From the NCBI GenBank assembly GCA_023381565.1, contig JAMCRR010000052.1:1-64000 (forward strand): DNA of 64,000 nt, read 5' to 3'. Of this stretch, positions 34,074 through 47,458 are shown piece by piece. The notes beneath the pieces were generated by a model that saw only the letters and a list, made by a program, of their open reading frames with translations, was not told the origin of the DNA and ran no database searches. The first letter of the stretch is position 1; each line of letters begins with the position of its first letter. The position numbers and the translations under genes were made by a program. This DNA comes from Chloroflexota bacterium. GTDB taxonomy: Bacteria > Chloroflexota > Anaerolineae > Anaerolineales > Anaerolineaceae.

Positions 34074-34089
34074 TGGCACAATACTTGCA
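34074..34089 (+). promoter_or_regulatory. Sigma-54 (-24/-12) promoter upstream of rpoN
   Basis: TGGCACA-ATAC-TTGCA matches the consensus TGGCACG-N4-TTGCW with one difference, and GG (-25/-24, 34075-34076) to GC (-13/-12, 34087-34088) spacing is exact. The predicted start is about 34100, 36 nt before the rpoN ATG. It suggests sigma-54 activates its own gene. Confidence 0.75.
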
Positions 34090-34135: not shown

Positions 34136-35548
34136 ATGCTGCAGACACATTATCAAGTCCTCCGCCCCCTCACCACCGCTCATCTGGCTCAGACGATGAC
34201 CCTGTTGAGCCTGACTGCAGAAGAACTTCGCCAGCAGATCGATTCGGAGCTCGCGGCGAACCCCGCTTTAGAGCTAATTGAAGAACGCCGCTGCCCTAAC
34301 TGCGGGCGACCTCTGCCACCGCGCGGTCCCTGTCCGATCTGCAGCCGTCCGGTCAGTCTGGACCCCGACGAACCCATCGTCTTCATTTCTCCTCGTGAAG
34401 ATTTCTACACCGGCAGCGGGATGTCCCAAGAAGATTATCCCGAAGATAATACCTCTCCTGCTACGGAAGATCTGCCGGCTTTCGTCCTGCGCCAGATTGC
34501 TCCCGAGCTGGAAAAACCGGATCGCCTTCTCGCCGCTTACATCTTGACCCATCTGGACGAAGACGGCTTCCTGACCACCACGCTTGCCGAAGTGGCTCGT
34601 TACCATCACGTGCCGCTTTCTCAGGTTGAGGCGATCTTGCACCTCATTCAGCGCGCTGAACCGGTGGGTGTCGGTTCCGCGAACCCCCAGGAAGCTCTTC
34701 TCGTCCAGCTGGAAGTCCTATCAGAAACCGTAACGGTGCCTGCTCTGGCCGAACAAGCGATCCGTGAAGGCATGGATCTTCTCAGCCGGCACCAATACTC
34801 AGACCTGGCTCATCTCCTTAAGATTAATCTGCGCCAGGCTCAAGAAATCGCCCGTTTCATCGGGGACAATCTGAACCCATTCCCCGCCCGTTCTCATTGG
34901 GGCGACGCTCGCGCCCACAGCTCCCCCGCCTTCCAGGTTTATAATCACCCTGATATCCTGATCAGCCGTCTCAATGACCGCCCCGAGAATCCCCTGGTCG
35001 TCGAGATTATCATGCCATTGGCGGGCACCCTGCGTGTAAATCCATTATTCCGGCAGGCAATCCACCAGGCTTCGAATGAAAAAGTCGACGATTGGAAATC
35101 GGATCTCGATCGCGCCTCCCTTTTCGTCAAGTGCTTGCAGCAGCGCAACCATACCATGCAGAGGCTCATGCAGCGGATTGCTTCACTCCAGGCTCAATTT
35201 ATCCTCTACGGTGAGAAGCAGCTCATCCCACTCACCCGCGCTCAGCTTGCCGAAGAATTAGAAGTGCACGAATCGACCATCTCTCGTGCAGTATCGAATA
35301 AAGCCGTCCAGCTTCCCAACGGGCGCATCGTCCCGCTCTCCATGTTCTTTGATCGCAGCCTGAACGTCAGGACGTTCTTGCGGAATATTATCGATATGGA
35401 AACCCGGCCGCTCAGCGACATGGAATTGGTCTCGATGCTGGCCGAGAAGGGCTTCAGTGTAGCTCGCCGCACTGTGGCCAAATATCGTGCCATGGAAGGA
35501 ATCTTACCAGCTCACCTGCGACACCATCATGCTATGGCCCATGCATGA
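34136..35548 (+). CDS. rpoN: RNA polymerase sigma-54 factor with Cys4 insert
   Basis: The 470 residues follow RpoN order. Region I (about 1-48) is leucine-rich and ends in ELAANPALE, which contacts activators. A Cys4 zinc-ribbon-like insert (Cys53, 56, 66, 69; CPNC-x9-CPIC) lies between Region I and the core. The core-binding domain runs about 110-260, and the DNA-binding region has an HTH (ELEVHESTISRAVSN) and the RpoN box ARRTVAKYR at about 443-451, which reads the -24 element. The Cys insert is not a standard sigma-54 part. It overlaps the next gene by ATGA, forming an operon with its kinase and activator. Confidence 0.9.
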   Translation: MLQTHYQVLRPLTTAHLAQTMTLLSLTAEELRQQIDSELAANPALELIEERRCPNCGRPLPPRGPCPICSRPVSLDPDEPIVFISPREDFYTGSGMSQEDYPEDNTSPATEDLPAFVLRQIAPELEKPDRLLAAYILTHLDEDGFLTTTLAEVARYHHVPLSQVEAILHLIQRAEPVGVGSANPQEALLVQLEVLSETVTVPALAEQAIREGMDLLSRHQYSDLAHLLKINLRQAQEIARFIGDNLNPFPARSHWGDARAHSSPAFQVYNHPDILISRLNDRPENPLVVEIIMPLAGTLRVNPLFRQAIHQASNEKVDDWKSDLDRASLFVKCLQQRNHTMQRLMQRIASLQAQFILYGEKQLIPLTRAQLAEELEVHESTISRAVSNKAVQLPNGRIVPLSMFFDRSLNVRTFLRNIIDMETRPLSDMELVSMLAEKGFSVARRTVAKYRAMEGILPAHLRHHHAMAHA

Positions 35549-37505
35549 GTAATGTAGTACCTCCACGTTCCACATTTGGATCCGCCTGGCGCGGAAAAGC
35601 GCCAGGTCTTGTTGAGTTTAACGTGCTGTTGAACTTGTTCGACGATCCGGCTCTGATGGTTGACATGCATAAGGGTCAGATCGTGAGTGCCAACAGCCAA
35701 CTGCTCAAATTAACGGCTTTTACTCACGCTGAATTAGTCGGTGCCGACTACGGCGCCCTGGTCCCCGATCTCGCCAGCGCAAAACTGATTCCGGGTGAAG
35801 AAAAAGAAACCCTGCTAAAACGGCGCCAGCGCGAGCCTTTATCGGTAATCTCTCACATTTTTGCGCTAGACAGCAATAATATCTGGATGCTTATTGTCCT
35901 TACCCCCCTGGTCGTTATCCAGCAGACACAAACCAATGAGAAGCGCCAGGATCAGCTGCTCCAGGCTTTGATCGACCTCTCAAAGTTGGCCGATCAGCCC
36001 GATCTCGCTTCGACCAACACGATGGCTATGCGCATCGGGAGAGGCTTGTTCGACGCCAACCTCTTGTGCATCTACCAGGCAGATCCCCTCTCCTCTCGCC
36101 TCCAAAAAATCGCCTCCTGGGAACCCGGACCGACACCATTTTTCCCCGACTTCCTACCTTCTCTCAGCATCATCCGCCTCGATGCGCCTTACATCTGGCT
36201 CCCCGGGAAAAAAGCTAACGCCGATATTCACCGTGCTGCCCGGATCGCAAACATGTATTATCTTGCCTCATTCCCGTTAGGCCAAGAGAACGGTTGGCAA
36301 GGCTTGCTTCTGGTCGGTGATGACCACAGCGCGCCTGTAGATAATCTAATCCCCCTGATGGAAATCTTGGGCGATAACCTGGTTTCAGCCTACCATCATC
36401 ACGACCTGTTAGAAAATCTGAACCGGACCGTTCAAAACGATCTTTATTCCCAGGCAATCCATAACACGGTATCGGAATACGCCCAAGAAGGCATCATCCT
36501 GCTCAAACCAGATCTATCTATCAGCCAGATGAACCCGGCTGCCGAGCTGATCTTGGGCTATGCCAGCCAGGAAGTGATTGGAAAACCGGTGGACAATGTT
36601 TTAATCGGCGCAGAAACGATATCATCTGCTCTCAAATCGGCTTTGCAGGGCATCCCCACGCACAATCTGGGGAATATCACCCTTCACCGCCGCAGCGGCC
36701 AGTCTTTTCTCGCTCATATTCAGACGATCCCGGTGATCCCCGATAACACGCTCTTAAATATCGTCGTTTTCCTCTCCGATGTGAGTGAAAACGAGCAGAT
36801 CCGCGTGCGAACTCAACAGCTCGAGCAAAGGGCTGTTTTGGGCGAAGTGACTGCAATTTTCGCTCACGAGGTGCGCAACCCGATTAACAATCTCAGTACC
36901 GGGCTGCAACTAATGAGCATGAATTTGACGCCTGAAGATCCCAACCAGGAGGTTATCGACCGGCTGCAGCACGATTGCTCCCGGCTAACCCATCTGATGG
37001 AATCGGTTCTCTCGTTCTCGCGCCCGATGGAATATAAACTTGAGCCGACCGATCTTTCCCTCTTGCTAAAACGGATCCTCGATCGCTGGCAGCCGCGCAT
37101 GTCCAGGGTAAACATCACGCCCTTCTTCCAGGCCGCTCCGGAATTGCCAATGGTGGATGGCGACCCGCGCGCTCTCGAGCAGGTCTTCACCAATTTGATC
37201 AGCAATGCGGTTCAGGCAATGACTTCATCAGGAGGAACTTTAGCGGTTAAAATAGCTTCAGTGAAACCACCCCAGGAACAGACGCAGGTTGAAGTGACCG
37301 TTTCGGACAGCGGGGCGGGGATTCCAGATGAAATTCGTGATCACATCTTCGAACCCTTCGTGACGACCAATCCGCAAGGAACCGGGCTGGGTCTGGCGAT
37401 CACTCGCCGGATCGTTACCGCCCATAAGGGCAGCATAAACGTCACAAGCTTTCCAGGAGGGACAATGTTTAGCGTTTGTTTCCCAGCCATTACAGGAGAG
37501 GACGT

Positions 37506-37524
<19 letters not shown>
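35545..37524 (+). CDS. Soluble PAS/GAF histidine kinase
   Basis: No membrane segment is seen, so this 659-residue kinase should sense a cytoplasmic signal. Order: PAS1 (about 30-110), GAF-like domain (140-290), PAS2 (305-415), HisKA with phospho-acceptor His441 in FAHEVRNPI, and HATPase_c (540-650) with DSGAGIPD and GTGLGLAI. This NtrB-like layout pairs naturally with the NtrC-like regulator that overlaps its end by 19 bp. Confidence 0.9.
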
Positions 37525-38699
<1,175 letters not shown>

Positions 38700-38708
38700 G
38701 AACTTCCC

Positions 38709-38724
38709 TGGCATATTTATTGCA
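38709..38724 (+). promoter_or_regulatory. Sigma-54 (-24/-12) promoter of the TPR-protease operon
   Basis: TGGCATA-TTTA-TTGCA keeps both invariant pairs, GG at 38710-38711 and GC at 38722-38723, with exact consensus spacing. The predicted start is 38735, inside the left arm of the hairpin at 38728-38757 and 25 nt before the ATG at 38760. It is immediately downstream of a sigma-54 activator gene, which raises its credibility. Confidence 0.8.
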
Positions 38725-38727
38725 TCT

Positions 38728-38757
38728 AAGCCTCCTGAAATCTAATTCAGGAGGCTT
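38728..38757 (+). terminator. 12-bp hairpin: terminator overlapping the next ribosome binding site
   Basis: AAGCCTCCTGAA (38728-38739) pairs perfectly with TTCAGGAGGCTT (38746-38757) around a 6-nt loop and ends in a short T-run (38756-38759). Its right arm holds AGGAGG (38749-38754), the Shine-Dalgarno of the gene at 38760. Read-through RNA from the rpoN operon would terminate or hide the site; RNA starting at 38735 lacks most of the left arm and leaves it largely open. Confidence 0.7.
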
Positions 38758-38759
38758 TT

Positions 38760-39083
38760 ATGTTCCCCGTCACAATCCCCGATTTCATCTTCACCATGGC
38801 TGCTGGCCTGTTTCTGATGGCGTTGATCTGTCTCTCCACAGGCATTTACCTCCTGGTATCCAAAGCCGGGGGACGTGATGTCAAGGCGATTGCCGACCAG
38901 GCAACTAAGCTGGCTCAAAAAGGGTTAGCCGAGGAAGTTGCCGGACTGGTCGGAAATGCTTCTTCTCTGGTGGATGCGCTCAATCAGCTTGCCCGCACCG
39001 GCGCAGGAATTGGTGTGTTCCTGGTATTGGTCAGCTTCCTTCTCACCGGGGTGGCTTATTTTCTGGTCGTCAATATTCCCTGA
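38760..39083 (+). CDS. Small two-TM membrane protein
   Basis: The 107-residue protein has hydrophobic segments at about 10-32 and 83-104. A soluble, helical, Ala/Gly-rich middle (about 35-80) contains heptad-like spacing. AGGAGG lies 5 nt before the ATG. I recognise no family. As the first gene after the sigma-54 promoter it may anchor the downstream TPR and protease-like proteins at the membrane. Confidence 0.75.
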   Translation: MFPVTIPDFIFTMAAGLFLMALICLSTGIYLLVSKAGGRDVKAIADQATKLAQKGLAEEVAGLVGNASSLVDALNQLARTGAGIGVFLVLVSFLLTGVAYFLVVNIP

Positions 39084-39181
39084 TCAGATTGGCTTCCCAC
39101 TTGCTTCAACTGACCCCGGTTAAGATCGCCTACCTCTGTAATGCCAGAGAGTCCCCATTCAATTCGGAAAAAGGAGCGCAA

Positions 39182-42100
39182 ATGCAGCTCACTTCCTTTT
39201 TGGCTGACCTAAAGCAAATCATTCCCCAGGATGATTTTGGTCCTGTTATCGCCGGTTTAAGGCAAGATCCCCTGGTTTGGCAGGCTTTGTCACAACCAGA
39301 GATTCTCGCCCAGGCAGTTGAGAATGCCGATGGACTATCGAAATTATGGAACCCGGCAACCCTATCGTTGATATTCCTTGGGAAGATCATTCCGCTGGAA
39401 AATCTGCGCAGCCTGCCGCTCCTACCCATCAGCACCGATCTGCGCCAAAGGGCAGCCCGCACTTACGAAGAAACAATCAAAACCAGCGCCGCTCCTAAAT
39501 CTCTGGGTGAAGCCGGCTTACTGGCCCTCGCATTACGCGAACGTCGCCGCCTCACTGATTCCTGGCAGGGCCTGGTCGACGAGCTGCAGTTTACACCCGC
39601 GAATCCCTCCTTGAACTGCTGGGGGCTCTGGCATACCCCTCTCGCCTGCCTGTATGCCATGTCACCCGATCCGGTTGACCTGCTGAAGGCGCTTCTCCCT
39701 GATTCAGCCTCTTACCGCATTCCCGAGCAGGTAGCTCTCGCCCAGCATGCCATTCTGAGCAATCCTTTGACCTTGCACCAACAGGTTACCGTGATGGTCG
39801 ATCTCTTGTCCGAGGTAGACCCAGAAGCGCAGCTTGCCTGGCTGACCGGTTTATCCGATCGAGGCCGATTTAAACTCGCCGGGCAACTGGCTACCGTTTT
39901 GCTCCAATCTAATCCGGCAACTGCGGTTCTTAAATCTGCCAGCCGGCAAAAATCCGAAAAATCTCTCGACCGTTACGTAACCGACAACCTCCTGAGCTTA
40001 CGGGATACGGTGGATACGATTATCGTCCAGCGTCAGTTGGCCAAGTTTTATCAGACCAGCGGCCGGCTGAACGAGGCGGTATCTTTACTTCACAATGCCC
40101 AGCAAGAGTTAAAAGCCCTCCAGGCTGATTTATCCTCTCAGATTGCCGCAACTGCCGTACATAACCAGGACCACGAGGGGGCGATCGCCGCATTGAAACA
40201 GGCGGTGCAGGCGCTTCCCGATTCCATCCAGGTCCGTGCTGAGCTTGCCTCGCTGCTGATTGATTCCGGCAGGGTCGATGAAGCGGCTGCCATCCTCCCT
40301 CCCCACGGCGAACATCCTCTCGCTTTGCTGGCTTCCGCCCGGTTAGCTTCGAATTCAGGAGATCTCCCTCATGCCAAAGAAATTGCTTTGGGGTGCGCTC
40401 GCACTGTTTCGAATGCATCACAGGAGAAATCATCGCCATCCTCACTCCTGAATCATGACCACCTGGTTGAGTTGGGCAGGCTCTTATCAGAACTGCAGCT
40501 GGTAGAACAGAGCATTCAGGTTGCCAACCAGGCCCTCGCCATTTATCCTGAAGATCCGGCTTTCCTGGATATCTTAAGCCATGCTCACCAACTCGCCGGC
40601 AATCTTTCAGCAGCCTCTCACGCAATCCAGCTGGCGCTCTCTTTTGCGCCGGATGATGTTGACCTGCACCGCAACTATGCCTCTATTCTGGGCGATGACG
40701 GGGATTGGGAATGCTCGCTTGCCGAGCGTCTCGGTGTCATACGCCTTGCCTCGCAGCCTACATCAGCTGATTTCCTTTCGGCTGCGCAGGCTGCCATCCA
40801 GGCAAAACAACCGGCTCAGGCGGTCTCCATCTGCCAGGATATTCTCCAATCGGACCCAGAAGAGGGCATGGCGCACGCCTATCTCGGCGAGGCTTACGCA
40901 CTGATGGATGACCCCGATCAGGCAATCCTGCACTTCACCCAGGCGACACTGCTCAATCCCGAGAATCCCTCTCCATGGTTAGCGATGGCGAGGATATACG
41001 AAGAATCCGGAGATCATTACAAAAACCTCGATACACTCCGTTCAGCGGCGCTGGCCTCGCCTGATTCTGCCGAAATCCATCTCGGTTTAGGGCAGGCATA
41101 CCTGGCGGATGGCTCGCCGACAGAAGCCCTGCCCTCCCTACGTAGAGCTGCCGATCTTTCTCCGCAAACCCCACTGATCTCTCTGCGGTTGGGCGAGACG
41201 CTTATAGACTTGGGACGCCTCTCCGAAGCTAAATCGGTTCTCGAGCGAGGTCGTGAATTCTGGCCTGCTCATAAAGACCTGGCTTTTTCCCATGCGAAAA
41301 CTCTGCTTGGTTTAGGGGAAACCGAAACAGCCTTATCTGCTCTGGAGACCACCCTGCAGGCTAACCCGGATCAGGCTGAGCCCTACTTAACCTATGGCCG
41401 TGCTCTGGTTGAGCTTGCCGATAAGCAAGGCACCTGGGGGAATTTATCGAATGGCGAAGTCGGCGGAACTCCAAATAAAACCGCCGCCGCTGTTCCAGCG
41501 CTGCGCAAAGCCATCGAAATCGATCCTGATAACCTCGAAGGGCACGTCTTGCTTGCTGAAGCTCTCGCAGCCAGCGGAGATCTCCAGGAAGCCTTCTCCA
41601 CCTATCAAGAGCTCTCTGAGCAGGAAATCACGCAAACCCCGGAATGGAGTTGGCGGATTCATTTAGGTCTCGGTCGAGTAGCGATCGCATTGAAGCAGAT
41701 GGATACTGCCATCGCTGCCCTGCAAGAAGCCGCCCAGATTAAACCAGAGAACTTGCAGATCCACCAATCATTAGCCGAGGCTTACCTGGCTGCGAATTTG
41801 CCGGATGATGCTCTACAGAAAGGGCGAGATGCATTGCACCTGGCGCCACACGATATCCAGAATCTGGCATGGTATTCGCGCTTGGCAGTCGGCCTTAAAA
41901 ACCCCGCCGAAGCCATCCAGGCTCTCGAGCAAGCTGCTCAGGTCACCCCTCACCGGTCAGATTTGCTCCTGCAGCTGGCTTCGATCCAGATCCAGCAGCA
42001 AGACACCGATTCCGCTCAGGATACCCTCAAGTCGATCTTATTCAATGAGCAAGCCTCTACCGAAGAGCTCCAGCAAGCGGCTCGCTTCTTCAGATCCGTG

Positions 42101-44755
42101 GGCGATACACCTTCGGCTATCCTGGCTTTGGAGAAAGCTCTGGGCAGGTCGCCTGCCAAACCAGCCGAAATCTGGGCTGAGCTGGCTTCTCTACAGAGGT
42201 CAGCCGATAACCAGCCGGCTGCATTAGAGGCAATCCAGAAAGCTGTTGAGATTAATCCGGATGCACCGGAGTATTACGTCATCGAGGGCGATCTGCAGTA
42301 TGCCTTGAACCAACCTCAAGCAGCCTTGTCCAGCCTGGAGAGTGCCTTACAATCGCTCGAGATGACCAAACAATCCCATCAGGATACCCTCCAGGGAGAT
42401 TCTTCATCAAGCTCAAAAACAGAGAGCGATACTGCACCCTGGAAAGTCCACCTGCGGGTAGCGAAACTCCAGCGGGCCATGGGAGATCTGGTTTCTGCAG
42501 GCGCCCACGCTGAAAAAGCAGTTGAATTGGCTCCTGACCAACCTGAAGCCCGCTATTTCAGCGCTGACCTGGCGCACGCTCTCCTGGAATTCGATCGGGC
42601 CATCAGCCTTACAGATGGCTCCTTTACCGGTGATCCGTATAACATATTCACATCCAGCGAAGGGAAAACCCCAGAAAGCCAGCAAGCACGCGGGGTTGAA
42701 TCCCAACGCATGTTGAAAATGCTCTGCTTGCAGGCCGAACTAAGGTTGGAAAATGATGATCTCGAACCGATCGCCTACTCTATATCCAGGGCGAGTGACC
42801 TGTCTTCTACATACCCCAGGTTATTGGCAGCCCAGGCGCGGCTGGAGGCCCGCTGCGGAGATTATAAGGCGGCCGAACAGCTGCTCGAAAAGGCGATTTC
42901 CAACTTAAACGGCACAGAGAATAGCGCAGATGGCTCCAGCTCATCCCAAAATGCTGCCTCTTCGCCTAATCCGGAGACCCTGATCAACGGGATACATTCC
43001 GAATATCCTACCCTGGCAATCGCCGAGGCCGCCCTTGAGCTCCAGCAATGGGAAGTGGCCATGCCGCTGTTCTTCCAGGCAGCCCGCACAGCCCCCCTCG
43101 AACCGCTGCCGCATCTCTCCCTGGCACGTGCTCTGGTACGAGCTGCCGAGAAACAGCACGAATACCAGATGCTGCACGCCTCGCAACATGCTCCTGGCGA
43201 GGATCGACTGAAAGAAACCTGGTACCAGCAGTTCGAGAAAGCAATCCTGACGGCAAACAGGCTTTCCAGCTCAGAGGAGATCGCCCGCTGGCATAAACGC
43301 GGCCAGGCGGTCTTCCATCCCGGTCCGCATACCGCCAAATTAATCGACGCTGCCTCAACCGATCTGGAAGATATCCAGGCTCTGATCAGCGCTTTGGTGC
43401 AGATGGGCAATAAGACCGGTGGAATAGACATTTCCCGCCCCTTCGATGATCACCGTGAAGTGCTCTTCCAGCAAGCGTTGATCCAAATTGAAACCGACCC
43501 GCAAAAGAGCCTCACCGCCGCGAAAAGTGTTGTAGAAAGACAACCCAACCATCCGCTTCACCAGGCACTCCTGGCATTCTCAGCTAATGCCGCAGGAGAT
43601 CGCCAGACCGCCATCCAGGCTATCGAAAGAGCATTGGAATATTGGCCGAACGAACCCGAATGGCATGCTTTTGCAGCCGGTTTATACACCCAGCAATACC
43701 AGCCTGATAACGCGTTGACGCATTGGAAGCACGCCTTCAACCTCGATCCCGAAAATCCAATCTTTGCCCTGCAGCTCGGCGAGACCTTCCTGGAATGCGG
43801 AGATTCGACCAGGGGCATTCAAACCCTGGAACAGGCTACCCAACTGGATCCCCGCCAGATCGAAGCCTGGACTGCCCTGGCGCATGCTTATTCATCGGAG
43901 AGTAACTATACTCAGGCTACCGCCTGCGCCGAACGCGCCATCGCTCTGGCTCCGCATCAAACGGCCCCGCTGGTCTTGAGCGGGGAGATTGCCCTCGAAT
44001 CAGGCCAGATTGACCTGGCGGTCGAACGCGCCGAGGCTGCCCTGGCTGCCGACCCGGCGGATGCGCGGGCTTTACTCTTGTTCGCCCTGACCAAAAAAGC
44101 ATCCGGAAAACCGGAAGAAGCGCTGAATACAATCGAGACCTCGCTGCCATCCCTGGCAAATCCATATCCGGTATTATTGGAGCGCGCTCACCTCATCCGC
44201 ACGCTGCGTTCTGCAAATGCTGCTCTCGAGGTGTTGCATGAATTGGTCGAACAATATCCAGACGAGCCTGAGTCTCTTGGGTTGCTGGCAGATGTGCTCG
44301 CCGAAACCGGGCAGCGCGAGGCTGCCGAGAAAGCCGCCCAATCTGCCATCATGCTGCAGCCCAACCATGCCTCGCTCCACCTTCTTTTAGGCCGCATCCA
44401 GCGCTCGAGCGGTCAGCTGGATCAAGCCGTGCACCATTTGGCAGAAGCAGTTCGTCTTGAACCCGGCAATATCGAGGCGCTCATCGAGCTTGGACGGGTT
44501 TATCAAGACCGGCGAGAGCATTCTCAGGCACTGAAGGTCTATCAGCAAGCCTACGAGATTGCCCCAACTGACGCTCGCCCTTATTATCAAGCCGGCCTCG
44601 CTTTCAAAGACAGCAAAGATTACGTCAACGCAGAGGCCAAATTCCGCCGTGCCGCAGAACTGGCTCCCGAGGACCTGAATATCCGCCGGCAGCTGGGGGC
44701 CATGATCGCCCTCAATCTGGTGCACAACCCACAGGAGGCATCGATTTCTCAATGA
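39182..44755 (+). CDS. Giant TPR-repeat protein
   Basis: About 1857 residues, nearly all tetratricopeptide repeats after the first ~270: the spacing of small and large residues in helix pairs such as A.AYLGEAYALMDDPDQAILHF recurs throughout. There is no signal peptide or enzymatic domain. Ser/Asn-rich interruptions (near residues 430, 1095 and 1255) break the array. The open frame extends to 39089, but the ATG at 39182 has AAGGAG 5 nt upstream and is preferred. TPR superhelices act as protein-binding scaffolds. It overlaps the next gene by ATGA, so the two products are probably made together. Confidence 0.9.
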   Translation: MQLTSFLADLKQIIPQDDFGPVIAGLRQDPLVWQALSQPEILAQAVENADGLSKLWNPATLSLIFLGKIIPLENLRSLPLLPISTDLRQRAARTYEETIKTSAAPKSLGEAGLLALALRERRRLTDSWQGLVDELQFTPANPSLNCWGLWHTPLACLYAMSPDPVDLLKALLPDSASYRIPEQVALAQHAILSNPLTLHQQVTVMVDLLSEVDPEAQLAWLTGLSDRGRFKLAGQLATVLLQSNPATAVLKSASRQKSEKSLDRYVTDNLLSLRDTVDTIIVQRQLAKFYQTSGRLNEAVSLLHNAQQELKALQADLSSQIAATAVHNQDHEGAIAALKQAVQALPDSIQVRAELASLLIDSGRVDEAAAILPPHGEHPLALLASARLASNSGDLPHAKEIALGCARTVSNASQEKSSPSSLLNHDHLVELGRLLSELQLVEQSIQVANQALAIYPEDPAFLDILSHAHQLAGNLSAASHAIQLALSFAPDDVDLHRNYASILGDDGDWECSLAERLGVIRLASQPTSADFLSAAQAAIQAKQPAQAVSICQDILQSDPEEGMAHAYLGEAYALMDDPDQAILHFTQATLLNPENPSPWLAMARIYEESGDHYKNLDTLRSAALASPDSAEIHLGLGQAYLADGSPTEALPSLRRAADLSPQTPLISLRLGETLIDLGRLSEAKSVLERGREFWPAHKDLAFSHAKTLLGLGETETALSALETTLQANPDQAEPYLTYGRALVELADKQGTWGNLSNGEVGGTPNKTAAAVPALRKAIEIDPDNLEGHVLLAEALAASGDLQEAFSTYQELSEQEITQTPEWSWRIHLGLGRVAIALKQMDTAIAALQEAAQIKPENLQIHQSLAEAYLAANLPDDALQKGRDALHLAPHDIQNLAWYSRLAVGLKNPAEAIQALEQAAQVTPHRSDLLLQLASIQIQQQDTDSAQDTLKSILFNEQASTEELQQAARFFRSVGDTPSAILALEKALGRSPAKPAEIWAELASLQRSADNQPAALEAIQKAVEINPDAPEYYVIEGDLQYALNQPQAALSSLESALQSLEMTKQSHQDTLQGDSSSSSKTESDTAPWKVHLRVAKLQRAMGDLVSAGAHAEKAVELAPDQPEARYFSADLAHALLEFDRAISLTDGSFTGDPYNIFTSSEGKTPESQQARGVESQRMLKMLCLQAELRLENDDLEPIAYSISRASDLSSTYPRLLAAQARLEARCGDYKAAEQLLEKAISNLNGTENSADGSSSSQNAASSPNPETLINGIHSEYPTLAIAEAALELQQWEVAMPLFFQAARTAPLEPLPHLSLARALVRAAEKQHEYQMLHASQHAPGEDRLKETWYQQFEKAILTANRLSSSEEIARWHKRGQAVFHPGPHTAKLIDAASTDLEDIQALISALVQMGNKTGGIDISRPFDDHREVLFQQALIQIETDPQKSLTAAKSVVERQPNHPLHQALLAFSANAAGDRQTAIQAIERALEYWPNEPEWHAFAAGLYTQQYQPDNALTHWKHAFNLDPENPIFALQLGETFLECGDSTRGIQTLEQATQLDPRQIEAWTALAHAYSSESNYTQATACAERAIALAPHQTAPLVLSGEIALESGQIDLAVERAEAALAADPADARALLLFALTKKASGKPEEALNTIETSLPSLANPYPVLLERAHLIRTLRSANAALEVLHELVEQYPDEPESLGLLADVLAETGQREAAEKAAQSAIMLQPNHASLHLLLGRIQRSSGQLDQAVHHLAEAVRLEPGNIEALIELGRVYQDRREHSQALKVYQQAYEIAPTDARPYYQAGLAFKDSKDYVNAEAKFRRAAELAPEDLNIRRQLGAMIALNLVHNPQEASISQ

Positions 44756-47385
44756 AACACGCCATCTCCAATCCCTTGAATTTTGACCGTCCGGTCAGCC
44801 GGGCAACCATCCTTGCGCTTCTGAGCACGGCGACGAGAGTGAAAGAATATCGATTTGCCCGGCAGGCATCACTCGCCTGGCTGGCGACGTTCCCTGGAGA
44901 CCTGCGAGTCAGCCTGATCCTGGCGCAAACCTATATCGCTGAAGAGCGGTTTTCACAAGCTGCTCCACTGATTGAGAGCCTGTGCCAGAAAGACCCAGAG
45001 TTCCTCCCGGCACAAAAGATCCGGGGCAACCCTCAGGTATATAAAAATCCAGACCTGCGCACCATTGCTCGGGGATGCATTTACGCTTTGGGCGGTGAAG
45101 ACAAGAATGAAATGGCCCTACCCTCCTGGAGCCGCCAGGCACGCGCCGCTCGAGAAGCACTCCAGGTTGGGGACCTTGCACGAGCGAGCGAGCTGATTCA
45201 CCAGGCGATGGCGGTCGATCCCCCCACACCGATCCCGGCAATCCTGCACGTACAGATTACCCGCGCCGGTTCTGATCGCCAGGCAATGTACAACCTGATC
45301 GATGTCTACTATACTCGCTGGCCAGAATGCCTCCAATTCAAATTGTTCAAAGCCGAGAAGCTGAGCGAAACCGGCGACGATGAAGGTTCGGTGGCTCTTC
45401 TGCACCAATGCGCCGCTTTAGACGCTGCCGGGCAGGTTCCAGGGCGTTTATGGGGCCCGGACCACCCCTACCGGCCGCTGTGGCCCACCAGCATGGAAAT
45501 CCCATTCGATATCGCCGTCCCGGCGCCGATTGCCGGGCCGATGGGTTGGAACCAGCTCGCTGTGGGTCCGGCTACGCCTGAGCCTGAGATCGATACCTTC
45601 AACGAAGAGGCAACAGAAACCCAGCAAGCTGAACCTACCTCTCCCGAAGCAAAATTGGCCGAAGCAAAAGCGGCTGCATCCTTCAAGAATTTCCCTGATC
45701 TCTTGAGGGCAATCCAGATGGAGTTTGAACGTCTGGCCCAGCGCCTGCGCCGCCCCGAGGTCATTCAATCCGATGGTCGCTTCCCAATCTACGTCATCTT
45801 TACCACGCGGATGGGGCTTGAAAACCAGTACGGCCCTCAGACCGCCAAGGTTCTCGAAGCGGAGATGAAACGGCTGTCAACCGCCGTTTCTCGCCGGCAC
45901 AACTGGGGATCGATCTTATTCTATGCCGATGATTCTTCCAGTACGGCAGCCTTTGGATTGAAACCTGTGCCATACAATGACCCCTGGAAGCTGAAGCTCG
46001 CTATCGCCGACCTGGATGCCGCTCTGGCCAAGAAAGGTGAAATGATCGGCGCTATGCTGATCGTCGGCAATTCTCAGGTAGTCCCCTTCCATCGCCTTCC
46101 CAACCCCACCGACGACGGCGACCCAGACGTAGCCTCCGATAATCCCTACGCCAGCCTTGACAGCAATTTCTTCATCCCAGAATGGCCGCTCGGGCGTTTG
46201 CCGGGCGCAGCCGGCACGGATGCAGGCCTGCTGCTGGATTCCCTGCGCAAGATGACCTCCTACCACGCGGCTCATTCCCAACCTGTCCCCTGGTGGCAGA
46301 GAAACGGCCTTTTGAAGAATTTTACCAAGCGCTCCAAGCAGGCCGGGATGACTTATCGGGTGGGAAAATCACTGCGGTCCAGCTTCGGGTATTCAGCCGC
46401 AGTGTGGAAGCAATCCTCGATTGCCGTATTCAAACCGATCGGGGAATCTCAATCCCTTCTAACTTCTCCGCCGATCTCTTCGACAAATTTGTTGGGCACC
46501 AAATACTTACCCGCCCAGCTTGGCTATTACAACTTACACGGACTGCCAGATGAACCCGAATGGTACGGTCAGCGCGATGTCGCCGACCGTTCAACCGGTC
46601 CAGATTATCCGGTTGCCTTGTGCACGAAAGATATTTTGAACTCAGGCTCGGCTTCCCAATTCGTGTTTAGTGAAGCCTGCTACGGTGCCTTCATCGAAAA
46701 CAAGACCGAAGAACAGGCCCTGGCGCTCAAATTCCTGGCTACCGGAAGCTCCGGCATGGTTGGGTCTACCGGCATCTCGTACGGATCAGTCACCACGCCC
46801 TTGATTGCCGCGGATCTCTTGGGTTTCACCTTCTGGGATTTGCTCAAACAGGGGTATCCGGCAGGAGAAGCCTTGAAACAGGCCAAAATTAATCTGGTGC
46901 AGGAAATGAAAAAACGACAAGGGTTTTTAGACGGCGAAGACCAGAAAACCTTGATCTCGTTCGTTCTCTACGGCGACCCGCTGGCTTCGCTTGAAGATGT
47001 GACCCCTAAACGAAGGATATTTTACCGGCAGCATTCTTTCCCAGCCATCAAGATGATCAGCGACCAGAAAGATGATCCCTTGCGCCTGGAACCCTTGCCC
47101 GACGACCTGGTGGCTCAAGTTAAACAGATCGTCGACCAATATCTCCCCGGCTTGAAAGACGCCGATCTGTCGATCTACCAGCAAGCCGCCTTGAATGGGG
47201 AGTTGGACACGGTTGCCGCAGGAGGGAAGCGCGGATCCAAGCACAAGAAGCTGCAAAATAATTCCGCCCGCACTGTGGTAACCCTGAGCAAGAAGGTTGA
47301 ATCGGCCAAACAGGTCCACCACCACTATGCTCGCATGACATTGGACGGCAATGGCAAAGTGATTAAAATCTCGATGTCTCGCTGA
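44752..47385 (+). CDS. TPR plus C25-like (caspase-fold) cysteine peptidase
   Basis: The 877-residue protein has an N-terminal helical/TPR-like part (about 1-230), an acidic linker (about 275-310) and a C-terminal domain resembling gingipain-type C25/CHAT peptidases of clan CD. Evidence for the latter: the strand IGAMLIVGN, the SDNPYASLD...PLGRLPG block, His596 in YNLHG at the end of one strand, and Cys643 in FSEACYGAF at the end of the next, the clan's His-Cys order. The GDP motif near the end (YGDPLASL) also occurs in C25. No signal peptide is present, so unlike gingipains it is intracellular. The substrate is unknown. It is the last gene of the sigma-54 operon. Confidence 0.75.
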   Translation: MKHAISNPLNFDRPVSRATILALLSTATRVKEYRFARQASLAWLATFPGDLRVSLILAQTYIAEERFSQAAPLIESLCQKDPEFLPAQKIRGNPQVYKNPDLRTIARGCIYALGGEDKNEMALPSWSRQARAAREALQVGDLARASELIHQAMAVDPPTPIPAILHVQITRAGSDRQAMYNLIDVYYTRWPECLQFKLFKAEKLSETGDDEGSVALLHQCAALDAAGQVPGRLWGPDHPYRPLWPTSMEIPFDIAVPAPIAGPMGWNQLAVGPATPEPEIDTFNEEATETQQAEPTSPEAKLAEAKAAASFKNFPDLLRAIQMEFERLAQRLRRPEVIQSDGRFPIYVIFTTRMGLENQYGPQTAKVLEAEMKRLSTAVSRRHNWGSILFYADDSSSTAAFGLKPVPYNDPWKLKLAIADLDAALAKKGEMIGAMLIVGNSQVVPFHRLPNPTDDGDPDVASDNPYASLDSNFFIPEWPLGRLPGAAGTDAGLLLDSLRKMTSYHAAHSQPVPWWQRNGLLKNFTKRSKQAGMTYRVGKSLRSSFGYSAAVWKQSSIAVFKPIGESQSLLTSPPISSTNLLGTKYLPAQLGYYNLHGLPDEPEWYGQRDVADRSTGPDYPVALCTKDILNSGSASQFVFSEACYGAFIENKTEEQALALKFLATGSSGMVGSTGISYGSVTTPLIAADLLGFTFWDLLKQGYPAGEALKQAKINLVQEMKKRQGFLDGEDQKTLISFVLYGDPLASLEDVTPKRRIFYRQHSFPAIKMISDQKDDPLRLEPLPDDLVAQVKQIVDQYLPGLKDADLSIYQQAALNGELDTVAAGGKRGSKHKKLQNNSARTVVTLSKKVESAKQVHHHYARMTLDGNGKVIKISMSR

Positions 47386-47424
47386 TTTTCCACAATCATT
47401 CTCAACATCATTTGTAACAATCTC

Positions 47425-47458
47425 AAAACCACGGCTTTACGAAAAGCCGTGGTTTTTT
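47425..47458 (+). terminator. Intrinsic terminator of the TPR-protease operon
   Basis: A 14-bp perfect stem (47425-47438 with 47443-47456) around ACGA is followed by T's to 47458. It ends transcription 40 nt after the protease-like gene. Confidence 0.9.

What the first reader, a model, noticed from the sequence alone, without database searches (positions are those of the whole stretch)
38709..38762. Sigma-54 promoter nested in a terminator that masks the ribosome binding site
The predicted start (38735) falls inside the left arm of a perfect 12-bp hairpin whose right arm is the AGGAGG of the 38760 gene. Transcripts entering from the rpoN operon would form the full stem (termination and/or hidden Shine-Dalgarno). 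Transcripts from the sigma-54 promoter keep only about 5 bp, leaving most of the site free. One 50-bp element would thus insulate and switch the operon.
Basis: partly seen in the sequence, partly recalled or inferred. Interest (0 to 1): 0.75.

Follow-up and report, generated by a model that had tools for sequence, protein, structure and literature searches.

The report
Promoter hidden inside a ribosome-blocking hairpin
A 50-base DNA element found before one membrane-protein gene across an order of Chloroflexota bacteria appears to let the gene be translated only when transcription starts at its own sigma-54 promoter, because RNA running in from the neighbouring operon folds into a hairpin that hides the ribosome site and may stop transcription.

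Summary
A consensus sigma-54 promoter (38709-38724) overlaps a perfect 12-bp stem (38728-38739/38746-38757). The right arm contains the AGGAGG of the gene at 38760, and the predicted start (38735-38737) lies inside the left arm. I collected 177 non-identical loci of the downstream gene; 150 have the promoter. Where the NtrC-type gene lies just upstream on the same strand, 101 of 117 promoter-bearing loci carry a ribosome-site mask specific to read-through RNA; only 2 of 9 with a divergent neighbour do (phylogeny not controlled). The decisive point: base pairs whose left partner lies upstream of +1, absent from the sigma-54 transcript, change in compensation (26 Watson-Crick double changes on a tree at three positions; slid controls mostly 0-1, at most 4). 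Selection therefore acts on the long-RNA form. A T-tract follows the stem in about half of lineages (53% versus 3% in stemless relatives), so many copies are probably terminators too. Similar elements occur at a few unrelated genes. The logic matches T4 late genes (e, I-TevI); a chromosomal sigma-54 version, often fused to a terminator and conserved across an order, is a new variant. No RNA or translation data exist here.

The parts
38709..38724 (+). sigma-54 promoter (-24 GG, -12 GC)
   Evidence: TGGCATATTTATTGCA; a promoter found at 150 of 177 non-identical homologous loci
38728..38739 (+). left arm of the stem; 38728-38734 upstream of predicted +1 (anti-SD)
   Evidence: covariation of its upstream part
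38735..38737 (+). predicted sigma-54 transcription start (C38735 by spacing; G38737 nearest purine)
   Evidence: spacing from the -12 GC; elements centred at -12/-24 relative to the start (PMC12316311); not mapped
38740..38745 (+). hairpin loop, length variable in relatives
38746..38757 (+). right arm of the stem, containing the Shine-Dalgarno sequence
38749..38754 (+). AGGAGG Shine-Dalgarno sequence of the 38760 gene
38756..38759 (+). TTTT at the stem end, possible terminator tract
   Evidence: enriched T after the stem in relatives
38760..39083 (+). 107-aa two-helix membrane protein, no Pfam or NCBIfam family; the masked gene
   Evidence: found in 125 of 147 genomes of the family
37512..38699 (+). 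NtrC-type response regulator (sigma-54 activator), no DNA-binding domain found; ends 9 nt before the promoter
35545..37524 (+). PAS sensor histidine kinase, upstream operon
34136..35548 (+). rpoN (sigma-54), upstream operon
34074..34089 (+). second exact sigma-54 site, before rpoN; divergent neighbour, no hairpin
39089..44755 (+). 1888-aa TPR protein, probably in the same transcription unit
44752..47385 (+). C25-type peptidase-domain protein, probably in the same unit
47425..47456 (+). 14-bp perfect hairpin plus T-tract, probable terminator of the 38760-47385 unit

Best explanation
This is a composite promoter/insulator. RNA polymerase reading through from the rpoN-kinase-NtrC operon transcribes both arms, and the RNA folds into a 12-bp stem that buries the Shine-Dalgarno sequence; where a T-tract follows, as weakly here, the same stem should also act as an intrinsic terminator. 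Polymerase starting at the sigma-54 promoter begins inside the left arm, so the anti-SD half is missing and the ribosome site stays open. The downstream unit is thus expressed only when the sigma-54 activator fires, although it lies 60 nt behind the genes for sigma-54 and its activator. Shown here: the anatomy, conservation, phase, covariation and context dependence. Inferred: the start site, the existence of read-through RNA, termination, and the translational consequence.
For: SD opening cost is 19.4 kcal/mol in read-through RNA versus 4.1 from +1 for the window; the medians are 14.0 versus 4.1 over 102 hairpin loci, and 5.6 versus 3.8 in stemless loci. Pairs +3, +4, +5 outward from the SD centre, left partner upstream of +1 in 115-117 of 125 loci, show 11, 5 and 10 WC-to-WC double changes on single branches, against 0-4 (mostly 0-1) for slid columns. 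At 70% protein identity (53 clusters) pair +3 is Watson-Crick in 44, with all four pair types. The anti-SD centre is at -2 in 77 of 125. Mask in 101 of 117 loci with NtrC just upstream versus 2 of 9 divergent (Fisher p 8e-5, not corrected for phylogeny). Promoterless homologues: median fold -5.3 versus -15.1 kcal/mol. A promoter+CTCC..GGAG pattern hits 55 of 147 family genomes and 0 reversed-pattern controls. Similar elements at unrelated genes in L282, L283, L284, L320.
Against: No transcription start, RNA level or translation has been measured. 16 of 117 NtrC-linked loci lack the mask by the 4 kcal/mol criterion. The context association is confounded with phylogeny, since divergent loci sit mostly in other families. 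Two divergent loci reach the mask threshold. Other sigma-54 sites of this genome have no such hairpin. In about half of lineages the T-tract is poor, so termination cannot be the universal function.
Confidence: 0.8

Rival explanations
1. The hairpin is only the intrinsic terminator of the rpoN-kinase-NtrC operon; burying the Shine-Dalgarno sequence is a by-product of compactness.
For: Terminator scanner finds it with 12 pairs. T content after the stem is 4.5 of 8 versus 2.3 at the same positions in stemless homologues; at least 5 of 8 in 53% versus 3%. L154 and L169 have a terminator-like hairpin at the start site that does not cover the SD.
Against: 34 of 91 stems have no T immediately after the stem, and several abut the ATG, yet SD pairing persists. 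When the register changes, the new stem covers the region just before the start codon or the SD (L013, L020, L061, L175, L214, L226).
Confidence: 0.15
2. The inverted repeat is a DNA operator for a protein that blocks or assists sigma-54 polymerase at the start site.
For: The dyad straddles +1 in a fixed phase with the promoter, and its core CCTCC..GGAGG is conserved.
Against: The distance between arms varies widely (9 to 39 nt between pairing centres, apart from one outlier), arm sequences drift with compensation, T.G pairs are common at the inner SD pairs (20 and 34 of 125), and the conserved core is what pairing with the SD requires.
Confidence: 0.04
3. The hairpin acts in the sigma-54 transcript itself, as a 5'-end stabiliser or a condition-sensing switch such as a thermometer.
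For: A short 3-6 bp hairpin remains in many sigma-54 transcripts.
Against: Retained pairs vary from 0 to 9; the strongest covariation is in pairs that the sigma-54 transcript lacks; no Rfam match.
Confidence: 0.04

Closest known systems
Phage T4 late genes (e, soc, 49) and I-TevI: late promoter placed so that only long early/middle transcripts form an SD-sequestering hairpin (PMC3014915, PMC2988022)
   Same: Longer transcripts bury the ribosome site; a downstream promoter starts so that the 5' part of the structure is missing; used to keep a gene silent on transcripts made from upstream promoters.
   Different: Here the promoter is sigma-54 type, on bacterial chromosomes, conserved with covariation across an order, placed behind the operon that encodes sigma-54 and its activator, and often combined with a terminator tract between SD and ATG.
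Insertion-sequence transposase genes (IS10, IS50) whose ribosome site is masked in RNA entering from outside (from memory, not tested)
   Same: Protects a gene against read-through from neighbours by RNA structure.
   Different: Not mobile elements; here the mask is phased with a regulated sigma-54 promoter.
Intrinsic (Rho-independent) terminators
   Same: Perfect G+C-containing stem followed by T-rich sequence in about half of lineages.
   Different: The stem contains a promoter start and a Shine-Dalgarno sequence; the T-tract is the SD-ATG spacer and is absent in many relatives.

Membership tests
sigma-54 promoter | GG-N10-GC with TGGCAY..TTGCW consensus | tested here: met
   Exact match in the window; promoter present at 150 of 177 loci
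sigma-54 promoter | sigma-54 and an AAA+ activator in the genome | tested here: met
   rpoN 34136-35548 and NtrC-type 37512-38699
sigma-54 promoter | mapped start 12 nt after the -12 GC, activator dependence | not testable with these tools
   needs 5'-RACE and an activator deletion
start-site-dependent SD sequestration (T4 e / I-TevI type) | stable structure burying the SD in the longer RNA | tested here: met
   by prediction:
start-site-dependent SD sequestration (T4 e / I-TevI type) | own promoter starts downstream of enough of the 5' arm to free the SD | tested here: met
   by predicted start only; holds for starts from -2 to +3
start-site-dependent SD sequestration (T4 e / I-TevI type) | longer transcript exists and is poorly translated | not testable with these tools
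   no RNA or reporter data
intrinsic terminator | stable G+C-containing stem | tested here: met
intrinsic terminator | T-tract directly after the stem | tested here: inconclusive
   TTTT at 38756-38759, two of them inside the stem; at least 5 of 8 T in 48 of 91 relatives
known RNA family (Rfam 15) | match to a covariance model | tested here: not met
   no match up to E = 1 in 38000-39500

The most novel reading that the evidence does not exclude
A recurrent composite element in Anaerolineales, in which one ~50-bp stretch is a sigma-54 promoter, the terminator of the upstream operon and a read-through-specific ribosome-site mask. It would have arisen independently at several unrelated genes and be a general solution for placing tightly controlled sigma-54 genes directly behind active operons.
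Probability: 0.45. Interest if true: 0.75.

Novelty: new variant of a known kind. Interest (0 to 1): 0.64.

Why it matters
It would be a chromosomal, order-wide case of a gene whose translation depends on where its RNA starts, a logic documented in the papers I could read only for phage T4 and its relatives. It explains how a sigma-54-only gene can sit 60 nt behind the operon for sigma-54 and its activator without leaking. It warns that RNA-seq coverage over such genes need not mean expression. It also gives a compact, testable insulated-promoter design.

Tried and rejected
Other exact sigma-54 sites of the same genome were inspected and have no comparable hairpin. The CCTCC..GGAGG version of the pattern in 301 Chloroflexota genomes hit only this gene plus three matches whose arms are not visibly complementary. 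More distant homologues outside the order mostly lack the promoter. A survey of other phyla was not possible: 'of' needs a genome handle and E. coli is not held there. The DNA-operator and thermometer/stabiliser readings were considered and ranked low. Counting G.U against A.C mismatches as RNA proof was not decisive, because the SD side is invariant and the outer pairs fray. The HMM flag 'fam' for L287 came from a single-sequence E-value and is probably spurious; its product resembles that of L283. The literature library returned no chromosomal precedent; most subscription papers are not held, so absence there is weak evidence.

Full report
What is there. The window lies in a draft genome whose relatives are Anaerolineaceae (Chloroflexota). 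On the + strand rpoN (34136-35548), a PAS histidine kinase (35545-37524) and an NtrC-type response regulator (37512-38699) overlap end to end. Nine bases after the last stop begins an exact sigma-54 promoter, 38709-38724. A perfect 12-bp stem, 38728-38739 with 38746-38757, follows; AGGAGG (38749-38754) lies in its right arm and the ATG of a 107-aa membrane protein at 38760. By the -24/-12 rule (PMC12316311) +1 is C38735, or the nearest purine G38737, inside the left arm. Stem and promoter are both far above chance.

Folding. RNA that contains both arms folds the full stem; from 38735 only 5 weak pairs remain, and with more coding sequence other weak folds compete. Opening the SD costs 19.4 kcal/mol in read-through RNA, 4.1 from +1, 4.0 from +3 and 6.7 from -2, so the conclusion does not hinge on the exact start.

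Relatives. The protein occurs once per genome in 83 of 101 relatives and is found in 125 of 147 genomes of the family. I extracted 177 non-identical loci, drawing on genomes that include Longilinea arvoryzae, Anaerolinea thermolimosa, Ornatilinea apprima, Thermanaerothrix daxensis, Bellilinea caldifistulae, Levilinea saccharolytica and Leptolinea tardivitalis. 150 carry the promoter. In 125 of these at least 4 of 6 SD bases are paired in the -11 to ATG fold; the median fold is -15.1 kcal/mol against -5.3 in the 26 promoterless loci that could be folded. The segment pairing with the SD keeps its phase with the promoter: its centre is at -2 in 77 and at -6 to -1 in 111 of 125, while the loop varies.

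Covariation. I anchored the arms on the SD and asked which pairs change together on a maximum-likelihood protein tree of 102 hairpin loci. Pairs 3, 4 and 5 positions outward, whose left partners lie upstream of +1, show 11, 5 and 10 double changes from one Watson-Crick pair to another on a single branch. The co-occurrence is above expectation for pairs 3 and 5 (p at most 0.0025) and weaker for pair 4 (p 0.08). The same columns slid by 1-2 give 0-4, mostly 0-1. These bases are absent from the sigma-54 transcript, so selection must see the long RNA (or, less likely, the DNA dyad). After thinning to 53 clusters at 70% identity, pair 3 is Watson-Crick in 44 with all four types.

Context. By a register-free measure (extra cost of at least 4 kcal/mol to open SD-to-ATG in the long RNA), 101 of 117 promoter-bearing loci with NtrC directly upstream are masked, 7 of 24 with another same-strand gene, and 2 of 9 with a divergent neighbour (Fisher p 8e-5 for the first against the last; phylogeny not controlled). 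Among unmasked loci some have a separate terminator-like hairpin before the promoter (L073, L079) or at the start site (L154, L169). Some masked loci use a different register that covers the region before the start codon (L013, L020, L061, L062, L175, L212). The rpoN promoter at 34074, whose neighbour is divergent, has no hairpin. All this fits a device against read-through.

Terminator or mask. Of 91 stems of at least 8 bp, 48 have 5 or more T in the next 8 bases, against 3% at matched positions in stemless homologues; 34 have no T directly after the stem. SD pairing is therefore the shared property and termination a frequent addition. In the window the tract is modest (TTTT, two of them within the stem), so termination here is possible but unproven.

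Generality. A pattern of sigma-54 promoter followed by CTCC..GGAG hits 55 of 147 family genomes with no reversed-pattern control hits, and 71 of 400 genomes of the order with 2 control hits. Most hits in the family are this gene. A few are unrelated genes with convincing stems: L282 (lipoprotein), L283 and the related L287 (both behind an HPr-like gene), L284 and L320; the first four lie 5-19 nt behind a same-strand gene and have T-rich SD-ATG spacers.

Comparison. The logic is that of T4 genes e, soc, 49 and I-TevI, where long early transcripts bury the ribosome site and late transcripts start too far downstream to form the structure (PMC3014915, PMC2988022). The differences are the sigma-54 promoter, the chromosomal setting, the order-wide conservation with covariation, the position behind the sigma-54 regulator operon and the frequent fusion with a terminator tract. 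Membership in the mechanism class by experiment is untested.

Limits. All evidence is comparative and thermodynamic. The start site, read-through RNA, termination and translation are inferred. The gene tree rests on about 107 residues; the context test is not phylogenetically corrected; other phyla were not surveyed.

Noticed in passing
window 37512-38699: The NtrC-type activator next to rpoN ends after the AAA+ lid: Pfam finds no HTH DNA-binding domain, so it may activate without an enhancer site, as reported for some truncated activators (from memory).
   Followed up: partly
window 38760-39083: A 107-aa two-helix membrane protein with a conserved core (about AxQTAKLAQKGIxExxSGLVGNAS) is present once per genome across Anaerolineales, mostly under a sigma-54 promoter, and has no Pfam or NCBIfam family: an unnamed core sigma-54 target.
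   Followed up: partly
window 34074-34089: An exact sigma-54 site precedes rpoN itself, suggesting autoregulation of sigma-54.
   Followed up: partly
window 39089-47456: After the small gene come an 1888-aa TPR protein and a C25-type peptidase-domain protein, closed by a 14-bp perfect hairpin at 47425-47456.
   Followed up: no
L250-L259 and other promoterless loci: One genus of the family (handle g18) has lost both the sigma-54 site and the hairpin before this gene, a natural control for co-loss.
   Followed up: partly
L154, L169: In two distant relatives the start site lies inside a terminator-like hairpin (e.g. GATCTGGTTATCAACCAGATC with a following T-tract) that does not cover the SD: apparently the terminator half of the device alone.
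   Followed up: partly
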